DNA of 64,000 nucleotides from Rhodopirellula europaea 6C (lineage in GTDB: Bacteria > Planctomycetota > Planctomycetia > Pirellulales > Pirellulaceae), in NCBI RefSeq assembly GCF_000338295.1, contig NZ_ANMO01000269.1:32501-96500 (forward strand), written 5' to 3'. Each line of letters begins with the position of its first letter. Positions within the stretch are counted from its first letter, which is position 1. Below are positions 6,998-55,838 of this stretch, piece by piece. Under the pieces are notes generated by a model. That model searched no databases. It worked only from the letters and a program-made list of their open reading frames with translations, and was not told where the DNA came from. The translations under genes and the position numbers were made by a program.

Positions 6998-8094
6998 GCA
7001 CGACTTCGCAAGAATCCCAATCGGCGGCTCAACCGACCGGCACGGCGAGCAGCAACCAGGTCTCAGCCGGAGTCCACGCGGGCACAGCGGATTGCATCGA
7101 ACTCCGCCGATTGCATCGCTATTTTGGCAAAACCCATGCGGTCCATGACATCTCGTTCTCGGTTCGCCGAGGACATGTGTTTGGCTACATCGGCCCCAAC
7201 GGTGCCGGCAAAACAACATCGATGCGAATCCTCGCGACGTTGGATTTGCCCAGTTTTGGCGATGCGTTTGTCGACGGATTTTCGGTCGTCAATGATCCCG
7301 AATTGGTCCGCAGCCGGCTCGGTTTCATGCCCGACAGCTTTGGCACTTATCGCGACGTCAACTGTGAAGAGTACCTGGACTTCTTCGCTCGAGCCTACGG
7401 TTTGACCGGCCGTGATCGCACACGACGTTTGCGTGAAGTGCTGGAATTCACCGGCACGATGGGCATGAAAGACAAACCAATTCGTGGCTTGAGCAAAGGC
7501 ATGAAGCAACGCCTGTGTCTCGGACGAGCCCTGGTCCACGACCCCGCCGTTTTGATTTTGGATGAGCCCGCGGCCGGATTGGATCCGCGAGCCCGGATTC
7601 AGCTGCGACAAATGATTCGCCAATTGGCCAATCGCGGCAAAACCGTTTTGATCAGCAGCCACATCCTGACGGAACTCGCAGAGATGTGTGACAGTGTCGG
7701 CATCATCGAACAAGGTCAACTGCTGGCGACGGGCAGCGTTGAAGACATCCAACGTCAACGAGCGCAACACCGCGAACTCACACTGCGAGTGCTCGAACGT
7801 GCAAACGACGCCGCCGATCTGATTCGCAACCACCTGGCCGAACACTCTTCCAAATCAAACGGCGTTCCCGTCGAAAATCAGTCTTCCGAAACCGACGAAC
7901 AATCCTTGCCGCCCGCATCCCAAGTCGTCGTTGATGGCGAACTAGTACGCTTTGAATTCGAAGGCGACGTTCGCGATCAAGCCAATTTGGTCGCTTGGTT
8001 GATCGGACAAGGTTTCCTGATCGCCGAAGTTGCCGCTCACAAGAAAAGCCTCGAGGATGTCTTCCTGCAGGTCACCGAGGGATTGGTTCAATGA
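6994..8094 (+). CDS. ABC transporter ATP-binding protein
   Basis: The 366-residue protein is the ATPase of an ABC-2 type exporter. Walker A GPNGAGKTT lies at about residue 67, the signature LSKGMKQRL at about 166, and Walker B LILDEPAAGLDP at about 187, followed by the H-loop SSHIL. The C-terminal 115 residues form an extra domain, interrupted by a Ser/Asn/Glu-rich stretch (about 285-310), as is usual for subfamily members that carry a regulatory tail. ATGA overlap couples it to the membrane protein before it. Its own stop overlaps the start of the methyltransferase gene. A likely permease partner lies 2 kb downstream at 10081. Confidence 0.92.
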   Translation: MSTTSQESQSAAQPTGTASSNQVSAGVHAGTADCIELRRLHRYFGKTHAVHDISFSVRRGHVFGYIGPNGAGKTTSMRILATLDLPSFGDAFVDGFSVVNDPELVRSRLGFMPDSFGTYRDVNCEEYLDFFARAYGLTGRDRTRRLREVLEFTGTMGMKDKPIRGLSKGMKQRLCLGRALVHDPAVLILDEPAAGLDPRARIQLRQMIRQLANRGKTVLISSHILTELAEMCDSVGIIEQGQLLATGSVEDIQRQRAQHRELTLRVLERANDAADLIRNHLAEHSSKSNGVPVENQSSETDEQSLPPASQVVVDGELVRFEFEGDVRDQANLVAWLIGQGFLIAEVAAHKKSLEDVFLQVTEGLVQ

Positions 8095-9095
8095 GCGACT
8101 TCTTTACCCCGCCCAAACCTGTCACTCCCCTGCCCTCGCCCGAGGTCACCGCTCGACAGAGCGAGGAGTTCGCCGCGAGACTTCGCAAACGTGCCAAACA
8201 CCTTCGTCGTTGGCCCACGAAACAAGACATCACGTGCTTCCGGCTTTACGAACGCGATGTCCCCGAGGTGCCTTTGGTTGTCGATCGATACGAAGACCAT
8301 TTGCACATTGGTGAATTCGAACGTCCCCACGATCGCAGCGACGATGAACACACCGTGTGGCTGGAACACATGGTCAAGGTCGCCGCAAAGACACTGGACG
8401 TGCCACGTTCCAAGGTCTTCTTCAAACAACGCAAACGCCAACGCGGAACGGCCCAGCACGAAACCGTGGCGAGCCGACACTACCAGATCGAAGCCAAAGA
8501 AGGCGGCTTGAAATTCCAGGTCAACTTGTCGGACTACATCGACACCGGTTTGTTTCTCGATCACCGCATCACCCGATCGATGGTTCGTGATGAAGTCGCC
8601 GGCAAACGATTCCTCAATCTGTTCGCCTACACGGGCTCGTTCACGGTTTATGCCGCTGATGGTGCGGCCGCATCCACGACCACGGTGGATTTGTCGAACA
8701 CGTATTTGACTTGGGCGAAAGAAAACATGCGTCTGAACGGTTTCGAAAGCGACTCGCACGAATACATTGCTGAGGACGCGATGACGTTTATCAAAAACCT
8801 TCCCGCCACCGCAGTTTTCGATGTAGCCGTCGTCGATCCTCCCACCTTCAGTAACAGCAAACGCACCCAAAAAGATTGGGTCGTGCAAGACGATTACAAG
8901 GATCTGATTCAGCAAACTCTCAAACACATCGCTCGAGACGGTGTCGTTTACTTCTCAACCAATTTCCGACAATTCCAAATGGACGAATCCGCTTTCCCGG
9001 GTGCCAAAGTCCACGAAATCAGCCGGCAAACCGTGCCAGAAGACTTCCGCAATCGACGCATTCACCGGTGCTGGCGAATCACGCGAACCAACTGA
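8091..9095 (+). CDS. rlmK: Class I SAM-dependent rRNA methyltransferase, RlmK-like
   Basis: The 334-residue protein resembles the C-terminal (RlmK) half of the E. coli RlmKL fusion, which makes m7G2069 in 23S rRNA. The SAM site NLFAYTGSFTVYAA lies at about residues 180-193, and the catalytic-region motif DPPTFSNSKR at about 252-261. The end, with FSTNFRQFQMD and RRIHRCWRITR, also matches that family. ATG at 8091 overlaps the ABC ATPase stop (ATGA); an upstream extension to 7995 would lie inside that gene and is rejected. It is translationally coupled to the transporter genes although a functional link is not obvious. The THUMP/RlmL half of the E. coli protein is absent. Confidence 0.85.
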   Translation: MSDFFTPPKPVTPLPSPEVTARQSEEFAARLRKRAKHLRRWPTKQDITCFRLYERDVPEVPLVVDRYEDHLHIGEFERPHDRSDDEHTVWLEHMVKVAAKTLDVPRSKVFFKQRKRQRGTAQHETVASRHYQIEAKEGGLKFQVNLSDYIDTGLFLDHRITRSMVRDEVAGKRFLNLFAYTGSFTVYAADGAAASTTTVDLSNTYLTWAKENMRLNGFESDSHEYIAEDAMTFIKNLPATAVFDVAVVDPPTFSNSKRTQKDWVVQDDYKDLIQQTLKHIARDGVVYFSTNFRQFQMDESAFPGAKVHEISRQTVPEDFRNRRIHRCWRITRTN

Positions 9096-9104
9096 CGGAG
9101 ACCG

Positions 9105-9905
9105 TCACCGGCCAACAATATCCTCGCCTCCGTCCTTGGTTACCAATGCTTCCAAGAGACCAACTTCGATGGAATTGGTGATGAACTTGACGGCACCGTC
9201 GCCAAAAACAATGTGTCCTCCGCCCTGGTGAGAATCGTCTTCAGAAAGTTCCAGCAAAGTTTGCATATCGATGTCTTCGGGGCTCATCCAATGAACCTCA
9301 TTTTGATGTTCGGTTTCGACAAACAAGATGGTGCTGGCCAAACCATCGGTCGCCTGACCGAACTTGGTTGAGACCGCCCCCTCGAACATGCCCGAAGGTT
9401 CCACAACTGCAACGTAGGAGGTCATCAACGGATCGCCCACCTTGGAAGGACAGGCATAGGCAGACACCGCGGTCGATGCCACCACCGTGTTCTCAGGTGC
9501 GTCCCAAGGTTTGGACAAATCAATCTGCTGATACAAAGCGTTCTGCCCCATGAAAGGCAGAATCGCCACTCGCCAACTGTGCAGTTTGTTGCCATTTTCA
9601 TCGACCGTGTACGCGGGCGGCAATTGATTGTAAGCGGCATGATAATTGTGCAACGCCAGCCCGATCTGCTTCATGTTATTGCTGCAACTCATTCGCCGAG
9701 CCGCCTCACGTGCTGCCTGCACCGCAGGAAGCGTGATTCCCACCACGATGCCGCCGCAGACAAGCAATCCCACAAACGCGAGCCCTAAGAGAGGAGCGAT
9801 CACGCACCCAGAATTGAAACCGCTCTGTCCCACCACTTGCGCCTCAACTGGCGCCGTTTCGGCGTAGGGATTTTCAGAAACGAGTGGATCAGGCGAATCG
9901 GACAT
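9105..9905 (-). CDS. DUF1559 domain protein without a pilin-type leader
   Basis: The 266-residue protein contains the DUF1559 core found in large numbers in planctomycetes: LPAVQAAREAARRMSC, then NNMKQIGLALHNYH, and near the end HIVFGDGAVKFI. Most family members begin with a type IV pilin-like GFTLVELLVVI leader. Here the start is a hydrophilic, Pro/Glu-rich segment of about 33 residues followed by a glycine-rich membrane helix (about 34-60), so it is more likely an ordinary single-pass membrane protein. It faces the methyltransferase gene tail to tail, nine bases apart, and is divergent from the permease gene at 10081. Function unknown. Confidence 0.88.
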   Translation of the reverse strand: MSDSPDPLVSENPYAETAPVEAQVVGQSGFNSGCVIAPLLGLAFVGLLVCGGIVVGITLPAVQAAREAARRMSCSNNMKQIGLALHNYHAAYNQLPPAYTVDENGNKLHSWRVAILPFMGQNALYQQIDLSKPWDAPENTVVASTAVSAYACPSKVGDPLMTSYVAVVEPSGMFEGAVSTKFGQATDGLASTILFVETEHQNEVHWMSPEDIDMQTLLELSEDDSHQGGGHIVFGDGAVKFITNSIEVGLLEALVTKDGGEDIVGR

Positions 9906-46272: not shown

Positions 46273-49200
46273 ATGATGCATCGCCCTTTGCTCGCTTCGA
46301 TGATTTGGATTTTGCTGGCCGCGCCGTCCACTTTCGCGGACACACCGCCGGCACCATCCAAGCCGAACGTCCTGTTCATCGCGATGGACGACCTGAATGA
46401 CTGGATCGGTTGCCTGGGCGGCCATCCGCAAACCATCACACCTAATCTGGACCGATTGGCCGCCAGCGGTGTTCTCTTCACCAACGCTCATTGCCCCGCA
46501 CCCGCCTGCAACCCGTGCCGGTCGGCTGTCTTCACCGGAAGAGCCCCCAATCGATCGGGCCTGTATGACAATCGGCAACAAATGCGTGAAGTCATGCCGG
46601 ACGAGGTCATCTTGCCTCAATACATGAGGAACCATGGCTACCACGCTTCGGGGTCAGGCAAACTGCTGCACTACTTCATCGACGCCGCGTCCTGGGATGA
46701 GTACTTCCCAAAAGCGGAATCCGAGAATCCTTTTCCGCAAACATTCTATCCATCGCAGCGTCCCGTCAGTTTAGAACGCGGCGGACCGTGGCAATACGTC
46801 GAAACGGACTGGGCCGCACTCGACGTGACGGATGAAGAGTTCGGTGGCGACTGGGCGGTCAGCCAGTGGATCGGCGAACAACTTCAACAAAAGCATGAGC
46901 AACCATTCTTTCTCGGTTGCGGAATCTATCGCCCGCATGAACCTTGGTTCGTCCCCAAGAAGTACTTCGAGCCATTTCCTCTCGATTCGATTCAACTCCC
47001 GCCGGGATACCTCGAGAATGACTTGGACGATGTGCCTTCGATTGGACAGCGAGCGGCACGCAACCGTTACTTCGCCCACATCCAAAAGCAGGACCAGTGG
47101 AAACAAGGCATCCAAGGCTATCTCGCTTCCATCCATTTTGCCGATGCGATGCTCGGTCGCGTGTTGGATGCGTTGGAGTCAGGACCGAATGCAGACAACA
47201 CCATCGTTGTGCTTTGGTCAGATCACGGTTGGCAATTGGGTGAAAAAGAGCATTGGCAAAAGTACACACCGTGGCGAGGTGTCACCCGCATCCCCTTGAT
47301 GATTCGCGTTCCGAAAACTCCCAGTCCATCGCTCCCAAACGGCACTCCAATTGGAGTCCGATGTGATGCCCCGGTGAATCTGCTCAGTCTCTTTCCGACT
47401 TTGCTCGACCTTTGCCAATTGCCACCCAATCCCGTCAACGATGGGCCGAGTCTCCTGCCGCTGCTAAAGGAACCAAACACGGTCACTTGGAAACACAACT
47501 CGGTCACCTACTTGTCTCAACCCGGTGCCTATGCCGTTAGCGGTCGAACTCATCGTTACATTCACTACCAAGACGGAAGCGAAGAGCTCTACAACATCCA
47601 AGCCGATCCATACGAGTGGAACAACTTGGCGACAACACCGGATGCGGCTGAACATCTCGCTCAGTTCCGTTCGGCATCACCGACTAATTTCGCCAAGCGT
47701 ATCGAACCGTCGGTGAAGTCACTCGCGAAACTGACCTTTCGCACGATCCCTGAGGAAGGCGTTCCCGCGTCCAAGCCCGATGGCAACCAGTTCCCGGTGC
47801 ACTTCATCAACCAACAACGCGATCAAGTGGAATTGTGCTGGATCGATGCCAAAGCAAAACCAAGGTCTTATGGATTGATCCAGCCCGGCCAAACCAAAAC
47901 CCAATCGACTCGCCCGGGTGCCGTTTGGATGGTGAAAGAAGCCGATGGAGACAAACAACTCGGTTACTTCCGAATTGGTGACCGGACGGCTCAAGCGGTC
48001 ATTCCCGCCAGCAAACCCAATGTCGTCATCATCCTCACCGACGATCAAGGCTGGGCTGACCTGAGTTGTCAAAACGAAGTCGATGACATTCGAACACCAC
48101 ACATTGATGGTTTGGCAGCACGTGGCGTTCGCTGCACCAACGCTTACGTGACTTCTCCCCAGTGCAGCCCTTCCCGAGCCGGATTGATCACGGGCCGATA
48201 CCAACAACGTTTTGGCATCGACACCATCCCGGATATGCCGTTGCCGACCGATGCGGCGACCATCGCCGAACACTTGCAACCTCAAGGCTACAAAACCGGC
48301 TTCGTCGGCAAATGGCACTTGGAACCCAACGTCACTTGCATCGATTGGATGCACCGTGAATTACCGGCGATGGCGGGTAAACCCAGACGCCAAGTCCGGA
48401 TTCCATGGATCAAGATCCAGCCCTATTCTCCGGCACAGCAAGGTTTCGACGAATACTACTGGGGAGCGATGACGAACTATCGCACCAACTTCGATCTCGC
48501 CTCAGGTGATCTGCTTCCACAGATGAAACAAATTCACGACAAACGTTTTCGCATTGACATCCAAACCAACGCGGCAGTCAACTTCATTCAACGCAATCAT
48601 GACCAGCCGTTCTACTTGCAACTGAACTACTACGGTCCGCACACGCCGCTGGAAGCAACGCAGAAATACCTCGATCGTTTTCCTGGACCGATGCCTGAGC
48701 GAAGACGCTACGCGTTGGCAATGCTGTCAGCGATTGACGATGGAGTGGGACAAATTGTCGACCAGTTGAAAGCCGATGGATTGCTCGACAACACATTGAT
48801 CGTCATGACCAGCGACAACGGTGCCCCGCTGAAGATGACCAAGCCAGACTCGTCCATCAATGGTGACGCCGGTGGCTGGGACGGATCACTCAACGATCCT
48901 TGGGTCGGCGAGAAAGGAATGCTTTCCGAAGGCGGTATCCGCGTGCCGATGATTTGGAGCCTTCCCACTCAATTGCCCAGCGGGATCACCTACGACTGGC
49001 CAGTCAGTACGTTGGATATCGCACCAAGTGTTTTGAAACTTGCCGGCGGAGAACTTCCTTCCGGTGAGGCAGCGTTGGACGGCATCGACTTGATCCCACG
49101 ATTGAACGACATCCAAAATCCGTCCACGCGAACGCTTTACTTCCGATTCTGGGATCAAGCCGCCATTCGCCGTGGCAAATGGAAGTACATCTTCGTCGGC

Positions 49201-49410
49201 GATGGTCGTCGATTCCTGTTTGACCTCGAAAGCGATCAACACGAAAATCGCAACCTAGCGGAGGACTATCCAGAACTCGCTGACAAACTCCACGCCAACT
49301 TGGCGGCCTGGACATCGGAACTAACGCCCAAAGGCATGCCGCAAGGAAAGAAGATGCGAGAGCAAGCGTGGTACGACTTCTACTTTGAAGAAGCCGATCC
49401 CGTGAACTAA
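46273..49410 (+). CDS. Double sulfatase joined by a VHL-beta-like domain
   Basis: The 1045-residue secreted protein has a signal peptide (to about residue 22) and two complete S1 sulfatase domains. The first (about 30-490) is iduronate-2-sulfatase-like: PNVLFIAMDDLNDWIG, formylglycine motif CNPCR with Cys 79, and SDHGWQLGEKEHW. The second (about 580-1040) is arylsulfatase-like: PNVVIILTDDQGWADLS, CSPSR with Cys 631, GKWHLE, SDNGAPL. Between them, about residues 505-575 follow the von Hippel-Lindau beta-domain pattern: FPVHFINQQ, VELCWID, YGLIQPGQ and VWMVKEADG. It probably acts on a polysaccharide with two kinds of sulfate ester. No frameshift or internal stop separates the parts. Confidence 0.9.
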   Translation: MMHRPLLASMIWILLAAPSTFADTPPAPSKPNVLFIAMDDLNDWIGCLGGHPQTITPNLDRLAASGVLFTNAHCPAPACNPCRSAVFTGRAPNRSGLYDNRQQMREVMPDEVILPQYMRNHGYHASGSGKLLHYFIDAASWDEYFPKAESENPFPQTFYPSQRPVSLERGGPWQYVETDWAALDVTDEEFGGDWAVSQWIGEQLQQKHEQPFFLGCGIYRPHEPWFVPKKYFEPFPLDSIQLPPGYLENDLDDVPSIGQRAARNRYFAHIQKQDQWKQGIQGYLASIHFADAMLGRVLDALESGPNADNTIVVLWSDHGWQLGEKEHWQKYTPWRGVTRIPLMIRVPKTPSPSLPNGTPIGVRCDAPVNLLSLFPTLLDLCQLPPNPVNDGPSLLPLLKEPNTVTWKHNSVTYLSQPGAYAVSGRTHRYIHYQDGSEELYNIQADPYEWNNLATTPDAAEHLAQFRSASPTNFAKRIEPSVKSLAKLTFRTIPEEGVPASKPDGNQFPVHFINQQRDQVELCWIDAKAKPRSYGLIQPGQTKTQSTRPGAVWMVKEADGDKQLGYFRIGDRTAQAVIPASKPNVVIILTDDQGWADLSCQNEVDDIRTPHIDGLAARGVRCTNAYVTSPQCSPSRAGLITGRYQQRFGIDTIPDMPLPTDAATIAEHLQPQGYKTGFVGKWHLEPNVTCIDWMHRELPAMAGKPRRQVRIPWIKIQPYSPAQQGFDEYYWGAMTNYRTNFDLASGDLLPQMKQIHDKRFRIDIQTNAAVNFIQRNHDQPFYLQLNYYGPHTPLEATQKYLDRFPGPMPERRRYALAMLSAIDDGVGQIVDQLKADGLLDNTLIVMTSDNGAPLKMTKPDSSINGDAGGWDGSLNDPWVGEKGMLSEGGIRVPMIWSLPTQLPSGITYDWPVSTLDIAPSVLKLAGGELPSGEAALDGIDLIPRLNDIQNPSTRTLYFRFWDQAAIRRGKWKYIFVGDGRRFLFDLESDQHENRNLAEDYPELADKLHANLAAWTSELTPKGMPQGKKMREQAWYDFYFEEADPVN

Positions 49411-49587: not shown

Positions 49588-50319
49588 TCAACCGCTTGCA
49601 AACGTCGGAACAACAAAGTCGTGCCACGTCACTCCGTCCGGTAGGACCATGGATTCGGCAAATTCCAAGTGCAGAATTCGCCGGTGCCGCCAAGTGCCGG
49701 GATCAGACGAACCGCTGCAATGGCTGAGCAAAGGTCTCATCGCCAACACATCACCCGCCTCCGCGAAAATGGAAACGGCCGCGCCGACGTCTTCCCCGTC
49801 GCTGTCACTTGAATGATGCGAACCAGGAATCACTCGCAGTGGACCATTCTCATCGGTCACTTCGTCCAGATGAATTCGAAGCGTCAGCATCCGTCGCAAC
49901 ACGTCGTCGGCCGCGATGAAGTGAGGGACTCCCGCCTTGACCGTCGGCCGTGAGAAACAAGCAGAACTCACCGAGTTGTCTTCAACCGCGACGGATGTGT
50001 CCTTGTGCCAAGGCAACGCCCAAGTCCGATCGGGCGGCTTGTCAAAAAACAAAGCTCGCACCAATCCCAGCTCATCACCGAGTTGCTTTCTCAAGAAGCC
50101 AATCAACGGTTCACATTGCCAAACCGTTGTCACCTCAGGAATGCTGCCGATCAAATTGCGAGCCGCGTAAACATGACCGCGACTGGACCGAGCCCGAACG
50201 GAGTCAGACTCCTGCACCAAAGTCCGCGTGCAAACATCCAGCAGATGCTCGACCACCGACCTCGGCACCGCGTCGCGAAGAATCTGGAATCCGTTTTGAT
50301 CCAGCTCGTCACTGCTCAT
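49588..50319 (-). CDS. Phytanoyl-CoA dioxygenase (PhyH) family protein
   Basis: The 243-residue Fe(II)/2-oxoglutarate-type enzyme has the His-x-Asp iron-binding pair in PWHKD (His 105, Asp 107), a distal His in LLSHCS (His 200) and Arg residues at about 211-214 for 2-oxoglutarate. ENGPLRVIPGSHHSSDS is typical of the family. Members hydroxylate a range of small molecules. It lies 59 bases downstream of arsA on the same strand, so it may share the ars transcript; a link to arsenic is not known to me. Confidence 0.85.
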   Translation of the reverse strand: MSSDELDQNGFQILRDAVPRSVVEHLLDVCTRTLVQESDSVRARSSRGHVYAARNLIGSIPEVTTVWQCEPLIGFLRKQLGDELGLVRALFFDKPPDRTWALPWHKDTSVAVEDNSVSSACFSRPTVKAGVPHFIAADDVLRRMLTLRIHLDEVTDENGPLRVIPGSHHSSDSDGEDVGAAVSIFAEAGDVLAMRPLLSHCSGSSDPGTWRHRRILHLEFAESMVLPDGVTWHDFVVPTFASG

Positions 50320-52803: not shown

Positions 52804-55683
52804 TCATTGATAGTCGAACAGGGCCGTTGCGGTCGTGTCAGAATCGCTAACGACACGCGCCCAGCAAGCAGAAAAACCAAGCGGGAACTCGTGTCGGATC
52901 GTGCTGTCCGCGGGAACAATCAGCTTCTTGATCGGAATCCACCGCCCTTCGCCGTCCAAATCAACTTCCAAGGTCATCGCTACCGGATTCGAGTGCGTGT
53001 GCGACAGTGTCACCACTTTCTTGTCGTATCCCCGCATCAGATATGCGTCCGACGGTTTTCCCGCTCGAACGACGGAATCTTTCCAGAGTCCCCCGCGGCC
53101 GACTGGTTTACCAAACTTCCAAAGGTCATCCACTCCACCGAACCAAAGTCCCATTCCTGACGCCGAATCCCGAAACACATGCTCGCTCGCTGCCGCGTCT
53201 TGTTTGACACCAGCCAGCACCAACAATCCGTTCCACGAACAATAGTCCGAGATACGTTTCCCATGGCTCGACACCGGGCGAATCAAATTCCAAGCCGGTG
53301 GGGCACCGTTGATCACCAACGGGACCTCATAAAACGTCCCATGAATATTCGCGATCGTGCGTTCTGATTCGACTTCTCGCAACGCTCGAGGCCAACCCGA
53401 CTCAAAGGGTTTGTCATAGATCGCATCACCCTTGGGCAGTCGATAACGTTTTCCCTGATACCGAATAATGACGGAGGCTTCATCCACCGTGAACTCCGGT
53501 TCCACTTGCAGCTTCTCCGCCAACCCCGAATCAAATTCGTCTGACACAAACTGGAAGTCGCTCTTTGTGAATTCAAATGCCTTTCCATCATCAGTCAGCA
53601 GCCGCAAGTCACGACTGCGTTTAGCCGGGTAGACCAATGCATTGGTGGCTTGTGAATCATCCACGTTCGCCAAGCTAGCGAACAGCTCGTCATGACGCTG
53701 CTGATTTGGATAAGCGGATGTTTGATGCAAGAACGCAGTCGCCACGCAATCGTGATCCGTTTTGAACCGCACCCAAACGGCGTCCATCTCTTCGGGAAGC
53801 ATCTCGACAACCGAGTTTTCACCGGCCACCGAAACCTGACGAAAGTCAATCCACTCGTTCGTTCCATTGGGGTCAATTTGCATCGTGACCTGAACGGAAG
53901 CATCCTCAGGCACCGCGATGTTTTTGGATTGCTGCGAAGCCTTCGATTTGTTCAACGTCGCTCCCTCACCACGAATCATCTTCACGGCTGCGTTGCCATC
54001 AACGAACGCGGTGTGCGGCATGCCAAATGATCCAGGCGTGTGCTCGGTTTCATTAGCGGGAATCGAAATTTTCCCTGCCGGGAAGGAACGCATGTAAACC
54101 CGATCGTGGTGTCCATTGCCCCACCGAACTTCCATCTGAGTCAACTGCCAGTCCGGCGACATGGGCGGGTCACCTCGATGATCCACGGCCAAGTAAACCG
54201 TGACAGGCTGATCGACTTGGAAGGCATAGCCCGGTGCCGGCCGAGTCCAGTTGCCACGTCGTACCGTCACGGTCGGAAGCGCACTCAACTCCTCCGGCAT
54301 CGATGTGATTTCTTGTTGGTCAGTCGCTCGCAGTGTGACCACTGGCTTCGATTTCAACCGGCCAACGGCCAAGTACAAGGTTCGCGATTGGAAACCATCG
54401 ACGAGAAACGGATCGGACCATTCGTTGGCCTTCACTTCATCATCAATCCACGGCCCACCATAAGCGGATGCCGGTCCCCAAGTCTTCAAATCTTGGTAGT
54501 CACCAAACCACAGATTGCTCTGCGGTTGGCCCGCCAAAGGATTGCCTTGAACACTGGTCTCATCCGTTGCCAGCACCAACTGATCGTTCCAAGCACAGAA
54601 GTCCGGAACGTAGCGGAGGTGACTGCCAATTGGCCGAATTCCCTTGGACTGCTTCACCGAAAACGTCTTGGGAAAATCAAAGAACATGCCATGCATGTCC
54701 ATCATCCATCGTCCGTCCGTGAACTCACGAATTCGCGGCCATTCGGTGTACCAACCGTGACTGGCGTCGTTGCAATAAGCTGCCTTGGGGAGCAAATACG
54801 TGTGCCACTTGCCGTCTTCCAACACCTTCAGCCGAACGGTTCGCCGATCCCATCCCATCGTCCAAATCGGATCGTCCCCATCGCTGCCTCCGGTGATCCC
54901 ATTGGGGCCGGTGACTTCCGTGTACTGCCGACGCTCGACGATCTTCCAAGTCTCACCATCCCACTCCGCCAGCACGCCGCGTTCTTCCTCCGTCTTGGCT
55001 TCGCCACCCACCAAGACATCCTTGTAACTTCCCACATGCAATTCCCCGTTGTTGGAAATCACCAAACGTCCTTGCGAAGTGTAGCCACCCTTCCCATGCC
55101 ACCCCGGAACGGGCTTCTTGAACAATCGATTGACCTCCAAGGAGTGCACGTTGGCTTCCCAAATCGCGCCTTCCATGTCGATGTAGTGCACCATGTTCTC
55201 CGGGTCATTCAGATGCCGCGTGATCGCCGTCACTCGCATCGGCATTTCAGTGGGCGAGATCGTCCGCACGTTACCTTTGGCATCGATCAGATGATGGCCA
55301 ATCAGCAACTGCTGTGACTCTTCATGGATCATCCGTCCCGCAGGTGTCCCGCCGACGCTTTCGGGATGCACATTCAAAGGCTTCGTCAAATCGGGATCAA
55401 TGGAGAACAGCTTGTGTTCGCTTCCGCGTGGCATGTGTGGTGCATAGTTGACCATCCATAACTTGCCAGCCCACGGCACGATCGCCCCGATCCCACATTC
55501 GTTGTGGCCCGTTTTCAAATGAGCCCCGTTCTGGCTGTAAATGCCATACGTCGTCAGGTGCGGGTAAACCCCGCTGATGAACAGATCGGTCCGCGCAGGT
55601 GGTTGCTGACCACAGACCCAACAGGCATTCGATACCATCATCAGAAGCAAAAAGCACGGGATGAGACGCCGCAAGGTTTCCAT
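52804..55683 (-). CDS. Large secreted protein with an internal duplication
   Basis: The 959-residue protein has a signal peptide (METLRRLIPCFLLLMM...WVCGQ) and no domain I can name. It contains a duplicated stretch: about residues 280-436 and 735-891 share the order LPK-x-A, GWPR, (M/I)HGxF, IRPIxSH, DxCxWN, LVLA, LWFG, DL, GG-W, SD. The pattern suggests two propeller-like or beta-rich halves. I started at ATG 55683, since the frame to 55824 runs into the next promoter region. It is divergent from the ECF sigma gene. Homologues exist in planctomycetes as uncharacterised proteins, to my recollection. Confidence 0.8.
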   Translation of the reverse strand: METLRRLIPCFLLLMMVSNACWVCGQQPPARTDLFISGVYPHLTTYGIYSQNGAHLKTGHNECGIGAIVPWAGKLWMVNYAPHMPRGSEHKLFSIDPDLTKPLNVHPESVGGTPAGRMIHEESQQLLIGHHLIDAKGNVRTISPTEMPMRVTAITRHLNDPENMVHYIDMEGAIWEANVHSLEVNRLFKKPVPGWHGKGGYTSQGRLVISNNGELHVGSYKDVLVGGEAKTEEERGVLAEWDGETWKIVERRQYTEVTGPNGITGGSDGDDPIWTMGWDRRTVRLKVLEDGKWHTYLLPKAAYCNDASHGWYTEWPRIREFTDGRWMMDMHGMFFDFPKTFSVKQSKGIRPIGSHLRYVPDFCAWNDQLVLATDETSVQGNPLAGQPQSNLWFGDYQDLKTWGPASAYGGPWIDDEVKANEWSDPFLVDGFQSRTLYLAVGRLKSKPVVTLRATDQQEITSMPEELSALPTVTVRRGNWTRPAPGYAFQVDQPVTVYLAVDHRGDPPMSPDWQLTQMEVRWGNGHHDRVYMRSFPAGKISIPANETEHTPGSFGMPHTAFVDGNAAVKMIRGEGATLNKSKASQQSKNIAVPEDASVQVTMQIDPNGTNEWIDFRQVSVAGENSVVEMLPEEMDAVWVRFKTDHDCVATAFLHQTSAYPNQQRHDELFASLANVDDSQATNALVYPAKRSRDLRLLTDDGKAFEFTKSDFQFVSDEFDSGLAEKLQVEPEFTVDEASVIIRYQGKRYRLPKGDAIYDKPFESGWPRALREVESERTIANIHGTFYEVPLVINGAPPAWNLIRPVSSHGKRISDYCSWNGLLVLAGVKQDAAASEHVFRDSASGMGLWFGGVDDLWKFGKPVGRGGLWKDSVVRAGKPSDAYLMRGYDKKVVTLSHTHSNPVAMTLEVDLDGEGRWIPIKKLIVPADSTIRHEFPLGFSACWARVVSDSDTTATALFDYQ

Positions 55684-55838
55684 GATCAAGCTCAACAAGG
55701 TTCGGTGGGAGGACGGCTCGAAGATAACCGCACTGCCCTGAAATAGCGGCAAACGAATCAATTGGACATAAATTTTGAGCGACTTTGAATTTCCCCCCAT
55801 GTTTTTGTCCAAATGGACCGTCAACAGGCTGTCTTCCT

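What the first reader, a model, noticed from the sequence alone, without database searches (positions are those of the whole stretch)
46273..49410. Two sulfatase domains joined by a VHL-beta-like domain in one secreted protein
The sequence shows one uninterrupted frame with two complete S1 sulfatase domains (formylglycine motifs CNPCR at residue 79 and CSPSR at residue 631). Between them, residues ~505-575 match the von Hippel-Lindau beta-domain pattern: F-x-N, V-x-L-x-W, Y-x-x-I-x-P-G, and G-x-x-W. Bacterial VHL-beta domains are known as isolated domains in planctomycetes and elsewhere. Their use as a linker between an iduronate-2-sulfatase-like and an arylsulfatase-like domain suggests a processive enzyme acting on neighbouring sulfate groups, with the VHL part positioning substrate or partner.
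Basis: partly seen in the sequence, partly recalled or inferred. Interest (0 to 1): 0.8.

Follow-up and report, generated by a model that had tools for sequence, protein, structure and literature searches.

The report
Double sulfatase with a VHL-type domain
A planctomycete gene encodes two sulfate-removing enzymes in one protein; the small domain between them, related to the human tumour suppressor VHL, is really the tail of the first enzyme, and its binding pocket differs from that of human VHL.

Summary
Window 46273-49410 (+) is one 1045-aa ORF with two intact S1 sulfatase domains (motif cysteines C79, C631) and a genuine VHL beta domain (PF01847, 26.5 bits; cut-off 21). The "linker in a processive enzyme" reading is not supported. 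VHL belongs to the first sulfatase: 42 of 47 relatives with a readable end carry it after that domain, 35 with no other sulfatase in the frame. A second, S1_19-like sulfatase was joined without a linker in one lineage (7 genomes). Another lineage fused other sulfatases in front of the same unit, once giving three in a row.

New here: His115, a hydroxyproline contact of human VHL, is present in 40 of 50 other planctomycete VHL domains read (27 of 27 lying in front of a dipeptidyl peptidase) but in 0 of 65 sulfatase ones, which keep the aromatic cage and have Arg at Tyr112 (62 of 65). One loss explains this on the best tree without those columns, but the decisive fork there has support of only 45.

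Most likely: two tethered sulfatases plus an accessory, possibly glycan-binding, VHL tail.

The parts
46273..49410 (+). Whole gene: S1A sulfatase - VHL beta - S1B sulfatase, 1045 aa, stop included
46273..46338 (+). N-terminal signal peptide (residues ~1-22)
   Evidence: Read by eye from the sequence; no signal-peptide program was run
46363..47712 (+). S1A sulfatase domain (residues ~31-480), nearest solved relatives P18_S1_7 (6HHM) and iduronate-2-sulfatase (5FQL)
   Evidence: name of 6HHM from PMC9096561
46507..46521 (+). S1A formylglycine motif CNPCR (residues 79-83)
   Evidence: sequence; C79 and R83 invariant in A3 (there C55 and R59)
47764..48006 (+). VHL beta domain (residues ~498-578), C-terminal accessory domain of the S1A family
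47905..47928 (+). Altered pocket strand of VHL (residues 545-552): Thr546 = human S111, Arg547 = Y112, Ala550 = H115, Trp552 = W117
   Evidence: pocket residues of human VHL from PMC9528729 (passages)
47995..48021 (+). Linkerless junction (residues 575-583): end of VHL (AVIPA) runs straight into the start of S1B (SKPN)
   Evidence: same joint in the window and the six other fused proteins
48010..49335 (+). S1B sulfatase domain (residues ~580-1021), nearest solved relatives PfS1_19B (6PRM) and PfS1_19A (6BIA)
   Evidence: names from PMC9096561
48163..48177 (+). S1B formylglycine motif CSPSR (residues 631-635)
   Evidence: sequence; C631 and R635 invariant in A2

Best explanation
The protein is a secreted, two-enzyme sulfatase. 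Its first part is a member of a conserved sulfatase family ('S1A-VHL', S1_7/iduronate-2-sulfatase-like) that usually carries a VHL beta domain at the C-terminal end. In one planctomycete lineage a second, S1_19-like sulfatase was joined in frame to the end of that VHL domain, without a signal peptide of its own and without a linker. The two active sites most likely work independently, as tethered sulfatases that remove different sulfate groups of the same sulfated polysaccharide outside the cytoplasm, so that one signal peptide and one gene deliver both. The VHL domain is an accessory module of S1A. Its pocket lacks the His that human VHL uses to hold hydroxyproline but keeps the aromatic cage and the Ser/Thr, and carries an Arg typical of the sulfatase copies. 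Its most likely job is non-catalytic contact: binding part of the (anionic) substrate, or packing against S1A. SHOWN: architecture, conserved catalytic-type residues, family history, fusion, pocket differences. INFERRED: secretion, shared substrate, independent action, the role of VHL.
For: S1A-VHL without a second sulfatase is the rule: of 51 S1A loci (L002-L052), 4 are cut by a contig end before VHL; of the other 47, 42 have VHL and 5 do not, and 7 of the 42 have another sulfatase in the frame. The fused S1B domains form one clade (SH-aLRT 100); the fused S1A-VHL rows share a clade with two unfused rows (98/95), so one joining is enough. In relatives S1B is mostly unlinked: two single-contig genomes have S1A and S1B millions of bases apart (G024, G352). 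The joint is the same and linkerless in all 7. Both cores are invariant. A functional tie is suggested because all 10 of 397 genomes with a close S1B also have S1A (52 of 397 have S1A; hypergeometric 6.6e-10; 3 of the 10 are the fusions themselves, so 7 of 7 otherwise), against 2 of 6 for the weaker S1B tier. VHL facts.
Against: The co-occurrence is not corrected for kinship or for sulfatase-rich genomes; the two S1B tiers were divided after seeing the list; and searches scored only 2 and 4 candidates per genome, so absences are soft. The window neighbours that I scanned (efflux pump, AI-2E transporter, esterase-like hydrolase, PhyH, ArsA-like ATPase, sigma factor, FecR) give no substrate, and both halves are distant from characterised sulfatases. 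Three close S1A relatives (L036, L040, L044; S1A 67-68% identical) lack VHL, so VHL is dispensable there. Two unfused rows (L005, L052) fall inside the fused clade, which needs a loss of S1B or a second joining: 0 of 200 bootstrap trees hold the fused rows together, though the AU test does not reject it (p 0.06). No structure could be predicted.
Confidence: 0.62

Rival explanations
1. VHL is purely structural: a C-terminal cap or dimer contact of S1A with no ligand of its own, and the conserved Arg547, Pro548 and Asp570-Arg571 make contacts inside the protein.
For: The sulfatase VHL domains conserve residues outside the pocket too (G564 61 of 61, N513 61 of 61, D570 60 of 61, R571 58 of 61), and VHL follows S1A at a similar distance.
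Against: The aromatic cage (W523, Y533, W552) and T546, whose counterparts line a ligand pocket in human VHL, are kept as well; close relatives do without the domain (L036, L040, L044).
Confidence: 0.3
2. One reading: VHL is a linker that positions substrate between two active sites in a processive enzyme.
For: VHL does lie between the two sulfatases in 7 genomes.
Against: VHL ends the protein in 35 relatives without a second sulfatase and in the two N-terminal fusions; there is no spacer at the joint.
Confidence: 0.07
3. VHL still reads hydroxyproline and steers the enzyme to hydroxyproline-rich sulfated glycoproteins (for example algal cell walls).
For: W88, Y98, S111 and W117 of the human pocket are kept or replaced alike (pocket from PMC9528729 passages).
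Against: His115, one of the two side chains that hydrogen-bond the hydroxyl of hydroxyproline, is absent in 65 of 65 sulfatase VHL domains, and Tyr112 is Arg in 62 of 65.
Confidence: 0.06
4. The fusion is a chance gene joining with no advantage: sulfatase genes shuffle often in these genomes and some joints simply persist.
For: This genome has 125 sulfatase matches (some are pieces of one domain) and two further frames with two sulfatase domains (C29, C96); L132 joins yet another sulfatase to an S1B-like domain; Kim et al. 2016 (PMC4807772, section on sulfatases read) report a two-sulfatase gene in two planctomycetes and high rearrangement; two relatives inside the fused clade have no S1B.
Against: Catalytic-type residues have stayed intact in both halves at 71-82% identity, and the close S1B was found only in genomes with S1A (10 of 10).
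Confidence: 0.25

Closest known systems
S1_7 sulfatases: P18_S1_7 (6HHM, ulvan endo-2-sulfo-xylose sulfatase) and human iduronate-2-sulfatase (5FQL)
   Same: Catalytic core and overall alignment of S1A; best solved-structure matches (171 and 129 bits).
   Different: The matches stop before the VHL domain; too distant to carry a substrate over.
S1_19 carrageenan sulfatases PfS1_19B (6PRM) and PfS1_19A (6BIA)
   Same: Best solved-structure matches of S1B (224 and 192 bits).
   Different: Distant; S1B is fused and has no signal peptide of its own.
VHL beta domain (PF01847), human pVHL
   Same: Above Pfam's cut-off; W88, Y98, S111 (as Thr) and W117 equivalents kept.
   Different: Ala for His115, Arg for Tyr112; tail of an enzyme. 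Pfam reported no other VHL-type domain in the frame at E 1.
Bacterial VHL-domain protein of Litorilituus sediminis (PMC9002001, passages)
   Same: A predicted secreted bacterial protein with a VHL beta domain.
   Different: 213 aa with no enzyme domain named in the passages seen.
Two-sulfatase gene of planctomycetes P1 and P2 from Porphyra (Kim et al. 2016, PMC4807772; section read)
   Same: One gene with two sulfatase domains of different origin.
   Different: There the 5' domain is arylsulfatase-A-like and the 3' domain iduronate/choline-sulfatase-like, the reverse order; 'VHL' does not occur in the text. Not compared by sequence.
Sulfatase-glycosidase fusions of Kiritimatiellales (PMC6388578; passages)
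   Same: Fusions of S1_7-type sulfatases.
   Different: Partners named are glycoside hydrolases; 'VHL' does not occur in the text.

Membership tests
PF01847 VHL beta domain | Score above Pfam's gathering cut-off (21 bits) | tested here: met
   26.5 bits in the whole protein, 31.2 alone; 44 of 66 members of A3 match at E 0.01, 5 of the 66 having no VHL
pVHL-type hydroxyproline reader | Aromatic cage W88, Y98, W117 and S111 | tested here: met
   65 sulfatase rows: W 59, Y/F 62, W 64, T/S 64
pVHL-type hydroxyproline reader | His115 (hydrogen bond to the hydroxyl of hydroxyproline) | tested here: not met
   H in 0 of 65 sulfatase rows, A in 60; role of His115 from PMC9528729 passages
pVHL-type hydroxyproline reader | Binds hydroxyproline peptides | not testable with these tools
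   needs protein
S1 formylglycine sulfatase (S1A) | C-x-P-x-R motif and metal/catalytic residues | tested here: met
   CNPCR at 79-83; D39 D40 K130 H222 D317 H318 K330 invariant in 66 rows; catalytic roles recalled
S1 formylglycine sulfatase (S1B) | C-x-P-S-R motif and metal/catalytic residues | tested here: met
   CSPSR at 631-635; D590 D591 K680 H682 H790 D848 N849 K881 invariant in 12 rows; catalytic roles recalled
S1 formylglycine sulfatase | A formylglycine-generating enzyme in the genome | tested here: met
   8 PF03781 matches in the genome, two of them pieces of one frame
SulfAtlas subfamilies S1_7 (S1A) and S1_19 (S1B) | Falls in the subfamily clade | tested here: inconclusive
   Nearest solved relatives only; no SulfAtlas profiles at hand
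Processive two-site enzyme | Several turnovers per substrate encounter | not testable with these tools
   needs kinetics

The most novel reading that the evidence does not exclude
The C-terminal VHL tails of planctomycete sulfatases (shared with Verrucomicrobiota and Kiritimatiellota), carbohydrate esterases and LRR proteins are a new kind of carbohydrate- or anion-binding module, made from an ancestral (hydroxy)proline-reading VHL pocket by losing His115 while keeping the aromatic cage, with an extra Arg for sulfate in the sulfatase branch; the VHL domains in front of dipeptidyl peptidases in the same phylum (27 of 27 with His115) still read proline or hydroxyproline peptides, so that VHL-type reading existed in bacteria outside oxygen sensing.
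Probability: 0.25. Interest if true: 0.8.

Novelty: new variant of a known kind. Interest (0 to 1): 0.48.

Why it matters
It shows a VHL beta domain as a lasting accessory part of a widespread family of sulfatases, and gives a natural contrast: one group of bacterial VHL domains keeps most of human VHL's hydroxyproline pocket in front of peptidases that (recalled) cut after proline, another lacks its His115 in the tails of carbohydrate-active enzymes and LRR proteins. That makes the question of what VHL domains bind outside oxygen sensing directly testable with small recombinant domains. The double and triple sulfatases are test objects for whether tethering sulfatases speeds breakdown of sulfated polysaccharides.

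Tried and rejected
VHL as linker or processivity device: rejected, see relatives without a second sulfatase and the N-terminal fusions. Assembly artefact: rejected by six further genomes. Origin from a gene pair in the same order: no pair of the close S1A and S1B was found, but one distant pair was: in G464 (L134) an S1A-like gene without VHL (42%) is followed at once by an S1B-like gene (43%); it is the only one of 17 S1B loci outside the fusion with an S1A-like neighbour above 40% within about 1.5 kb. For the N-terminal fusions I first suspected that the upstream sulfatase of L031 was the fused partner of L024; it is not (about 20% identity). PhyH (next gene, opposite strand) as a hydroxylase partner of VHL: dropped, since of eight window neighbours searched none recurs in more than four of 55 loci, and PhyH in none (several loci are short). 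Substrate from neighbours: 20 flanking frames of nine loci (not all frames there) held no consistent CAZyme set. Alignment A1 was discarded because MAFFT laid S1B rows on S1A; A2 and A4 align them properly. The first S1A tree was a quick tree; it left out 17 loci as truncated or duplicate (L041, L042, L045, L048, L087, L089, L091, L093, L094, L100, L102, L106, L109, L113, L115, L116, L117), and the 61 VHL rows leave out the same loci. The VHL trees have few columns (86 and 77) and many unresolved forks; that uses 17 of the 65 sulfatase rows. PADLOC and promoter/terminator scans gave nothing of use.
Full report
WHAT IS THERE. Window 46273-49410 (+) is one open frame of 1045 aa starting with ATG ATG. 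By eye it begins with a signal peptide. Pfam finds two Sulfatase stretches (9.1e-97) and a VHL beta domain at residues 508-563 (26.5 bits; 31.2 bits when a 110-aa piece is scanned alone; gathering score 21). The first half (S1A) is nearest to P18_S1_7 (6HHM, 171 bits) and iduronate-2-sulfatase (5FQL, 129 bits); the second (S1B) to the S1_19 carrageenan sulfatases 6PRM (224 bits) and 6BIA (192 bits). Enzyme names and activities are from passages of PMC9096561; passages of PMC5066984 put iduronate-2-sulfatase in S1_7 and carrageenan 4-sulfatases in S1_19 and S1_7. The catalytic-type residues of both halves are invariant among the rows aligned (roles recalled). The genome has 125 sulfatase matches, some of them pieces of one domain, and 8 matches to the formylglycine-generating enzyme family.

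VHL BELONGS TO S1A. A search of one genome per species gave 54 loci. L002-L052 encode S1A relatives; L053-L055 are distant sulfatases (25-26%). By BLAST and a profile built from the family's own VHL domains, 4 of the 51 are cut off before VHL (L041, L042, L045, L048); of the other 47, 42 have VHL directly after S1A and 5 have none (L036, L040, L044 with S1A 67-68% identical; L046, L047 at 47-48%). They come from Planctomycetota, Verrucomicrobiota and Kiritimatiellota (titles). In 35 of the 42 the frame (at most 746 aa) has no room for another sulfatase, and it ends within 16 residues of VHL. Pfam itself sees VHL in 44 of the 66 rows of alignment A3 at E 0.01, 5 of the 66 being the rows without VHL, so its annotation under-reports the domain.

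THE FUSION. S1A-VHL-S1B in one frame occurs in the window, L002 (Neorhodopirellula pilleata), L003, L004 (S1B cut by the contig end), L010, L051 (Planctomycetes bacterium CA13) and G464, where a contig gap splits the gene. L010 is the gene of G525 (identical protein). In 397 genomes of the class, 52 have an S1A match at 1e-150 and 3 of these have the fusion; G257 and G405 are the N-terminal fusions below, and one further long frame (G584, 995 aa) was not read. The seven S1B domains are one clade (SH-aLRT 100). The seven S1A-VHL parts share a clade (98/95) with two unfused rows, L005 and L052, which group with L010 (97/95). The genomes of L005 and L052 have no S1B match at 1e-90, and the tail of L052 after VHL (PANEPGMNEKVDK) resembles the joint of L010 (PANQPNVVV). 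I read this as one fusion and one later loss. Holding the fused rows together as a clade occurs in 0 of 200 bootstrap trees but is not rejected by the AU test (p 0.06). The joint is the same in all seven: the last strand of VHL (AVIPA) is followed at once by the start of S1B, with no spacer. That S1B starts there at its mature end rests on the two separate S1B proteins whose N-termini were printed (L118, L121).

WHERE S1B CAME FROM. S1B relatives outside the fusion, at 49-55% identity, were found in 7 other genomes of the 397 (which scored 4 candidates per genome). One of them (G647) lies in a longer frame of 837 aa. In the two genomes that are single contigs, S1A and S1B lie at 0.93 and 4.89 Mb (G024) and at 0.43 and 4.81 Mb (G352); in the other five they are on different contigs. 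In Aporhodopirellula aestuarii (L007) S1B (53%) is also on another contig than S1A-VHL. Against this stands one distant pair in the order of the fusion: L134 in G464, S1A-like (42%, no VHL) directly followed by S1B-like (43%). It is the only such neighbour in 17 loci looked at. All 10 genomes with a close S1B (fusions included) have S1A, against 52 of 397 overall (6.6e-10) and 2 of 6 for the weaker S1B tier; I divided the tiers after seeing the list, and the figure is not corrected for kinship or for sulfatase number.

A SECOND, INDEPENDENT FUSION. L024 (1054 aa) is sulfatase X - S1A - VHL. L028 (1503 aa) is X - sulfatase Y - S1A - VHL, with X 87-89% identical to that of L024. They form a clade with the unfused L031 (100/100), away from the S1B fusions. 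L043 carries an X-like gene (46-48%) right behind S1A-VHL. The window's genome has two more frames with two sulfatase domains in register: C29 (1049 aa) and C96 (1586 aa, the second domain in two pieces). Kim et al. 2016 (PMC4807772; section on sulfatases read) reported a two-sulfatase gene with the reverse order in two planctomycetes. Sulfatase fusions are therefore a known kind. I found no paper on a VHL-bearing sulfatase in the open-access library (listings only except the papers named here; one search listed 15 of 20).

THE POCKET. PMC9528729 (passages) lists W88, Y98, H110, S111, H115 and W117 around hydroxyproline in human VHL, with hydrogen bonds from the side chains of S111 and H115 to its hydroxyl; Y112 lines the neighbouring pocket. 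The alignment puts these at W523, Y533, S545, T546, A550, W552 and R547 (columns to numbers: my count; the match to human VHL is weak, E 0.93, though it is the top hit). A Pfam search of 294 genomes of the phylum (at most 18 candidates scored per genome) found PF01847 in 42 genomes and 0 of 14 controls, 58 matches. I read 54 of them (30 loci giving 31 rows, and 20 regions giving 23 rows); not read there were the window's own, G205:C17 (read as L101), G100:C127 and G189:C20. With the 61 sulfatase rows plus 4, one search counts His at 115 in 0 of 65 sulfatase, 0 of 4 SASA-esterase and 0 of 5 rows labelled LRR (in one, L079:1435-2349, the LRR partner was not confirmed in the frame); in 27 of 27 VHL domains lying in front of a DPPIV-type peptidase (all in one frame); in 0 of 1 lying behind such a peptidase (L144); and in 13 of 13 others. 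So 40 of 50 non-sulfatase rows have it. Arg at 112 occurs in 62 of 65 sulfatase rows and 0 of 50 others. W88, Y98, S/T111 and W117 are kept in most rows of every group; H110 is kept in only 15 of 27 DPPIV rows and in no sulfatase row.

On a tree with all columns the sulfatase VHLs are one clade (98) and join the SASA/LRR/L144 tails with 89. On a tree without residues 544-552 (67 rows, 17 of them sulfatase) the sulfatase clade has 96 and one change of the His state is enough, but the fork that joins the two His-less groups has only 45, so two losses are not excluded; the Arg state needs 3 changes.

HOW IT PROBABLY WORKS. Shown: two sulfatase domains with complete catalytic-type residues, one frame, VHL as the tail of S1A, joining with S1B in one lineage, a pocket that differs between groups. 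Inferred: the protein is exported, each active site works on its own, both serve one sulfated polysaccharide, and VHL helps S1A by contact with substrate or by packing. No substrate can be named.

VERDICT. The protein is a new variant of known kinds.

Noticed in passing
L056-L062, L065, L067-L070, L073-L078, L081, L084 and L141-L143, L145, L146, L156, L159: VHL beta domain in front of a DPPIV/S9 peptidase, with most of the hydroxyproline pocket of human VHL (His115 in 27 of 27); a candidate bacterial proline/hydroxyproline reader.
   Followed up: partly
L144:1412-2788 (-): DPPIV/S9 peptidase with VHL at the other, C-terminal end, lacking His115: the pocket seems to go with position rather than with partner.
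   Followed up: partly
L140:1441-4215 (-) and L148:717-3498 (+): Neighbouring genes for a SASA carbohydrate esterase and an LRR protein, about 20 bases apart, each ending in a VHL domain without His115.
   Followed up: partly
L028:1198-5706 (+): Three sulfatase domains plus VHL in one 1503-aa frame.
   Followed up: partly
L134:890-4167 (-): S1A-like gene without VHL directly followed by an S1B-like gene, the order of the fusion, in a genome that also has the fusion (G464).
   Followed up: partly
L132:1-3114 (+): Another double sulfatase frame: a different sulfatase in front of an S1B-like domain (46%).
   Followed up: no
G000 contig C29:11147-13738 (-) and C96:16180-19062 (+): Two more frames of the window's own genome (1049 and 1586 aa) with two sulfatase domains each.
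   Followed up: no
L157:1433-3154 (-); L158:3-5361 (+): VHL domain at the end of a protein kinase with MORN repeats (L157), and of a protein with F5/8 type C and NPCBM domains (L158), the latter beside a second VHL frame.
   Followed up: no
L071:559-2457 (+), L080:491-1714 (+): VHL domains in proteins with a stretch matching the metallopeptidase-type profiles PF07737/PF06167.
   Followed up: no
L052:7650-7692 (+): Tail after VHL (PANEPGMNEKVDK) that looks like a remnant of the S1B joint, followed by short sulfatase-like frames (7789-8016, 8072-8785, 8793-9500).
   Followed up: partly
window 52804-55824 (-): 1006-aa frame in which Pfam found nothing over its cut-off.
   Followed up: no
window 49588-50319 (-): PhyH-type dioxygenase gene convergent with the sulfatase gene; no relative of it found in 55 S1A loci.
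   Followed up: yes
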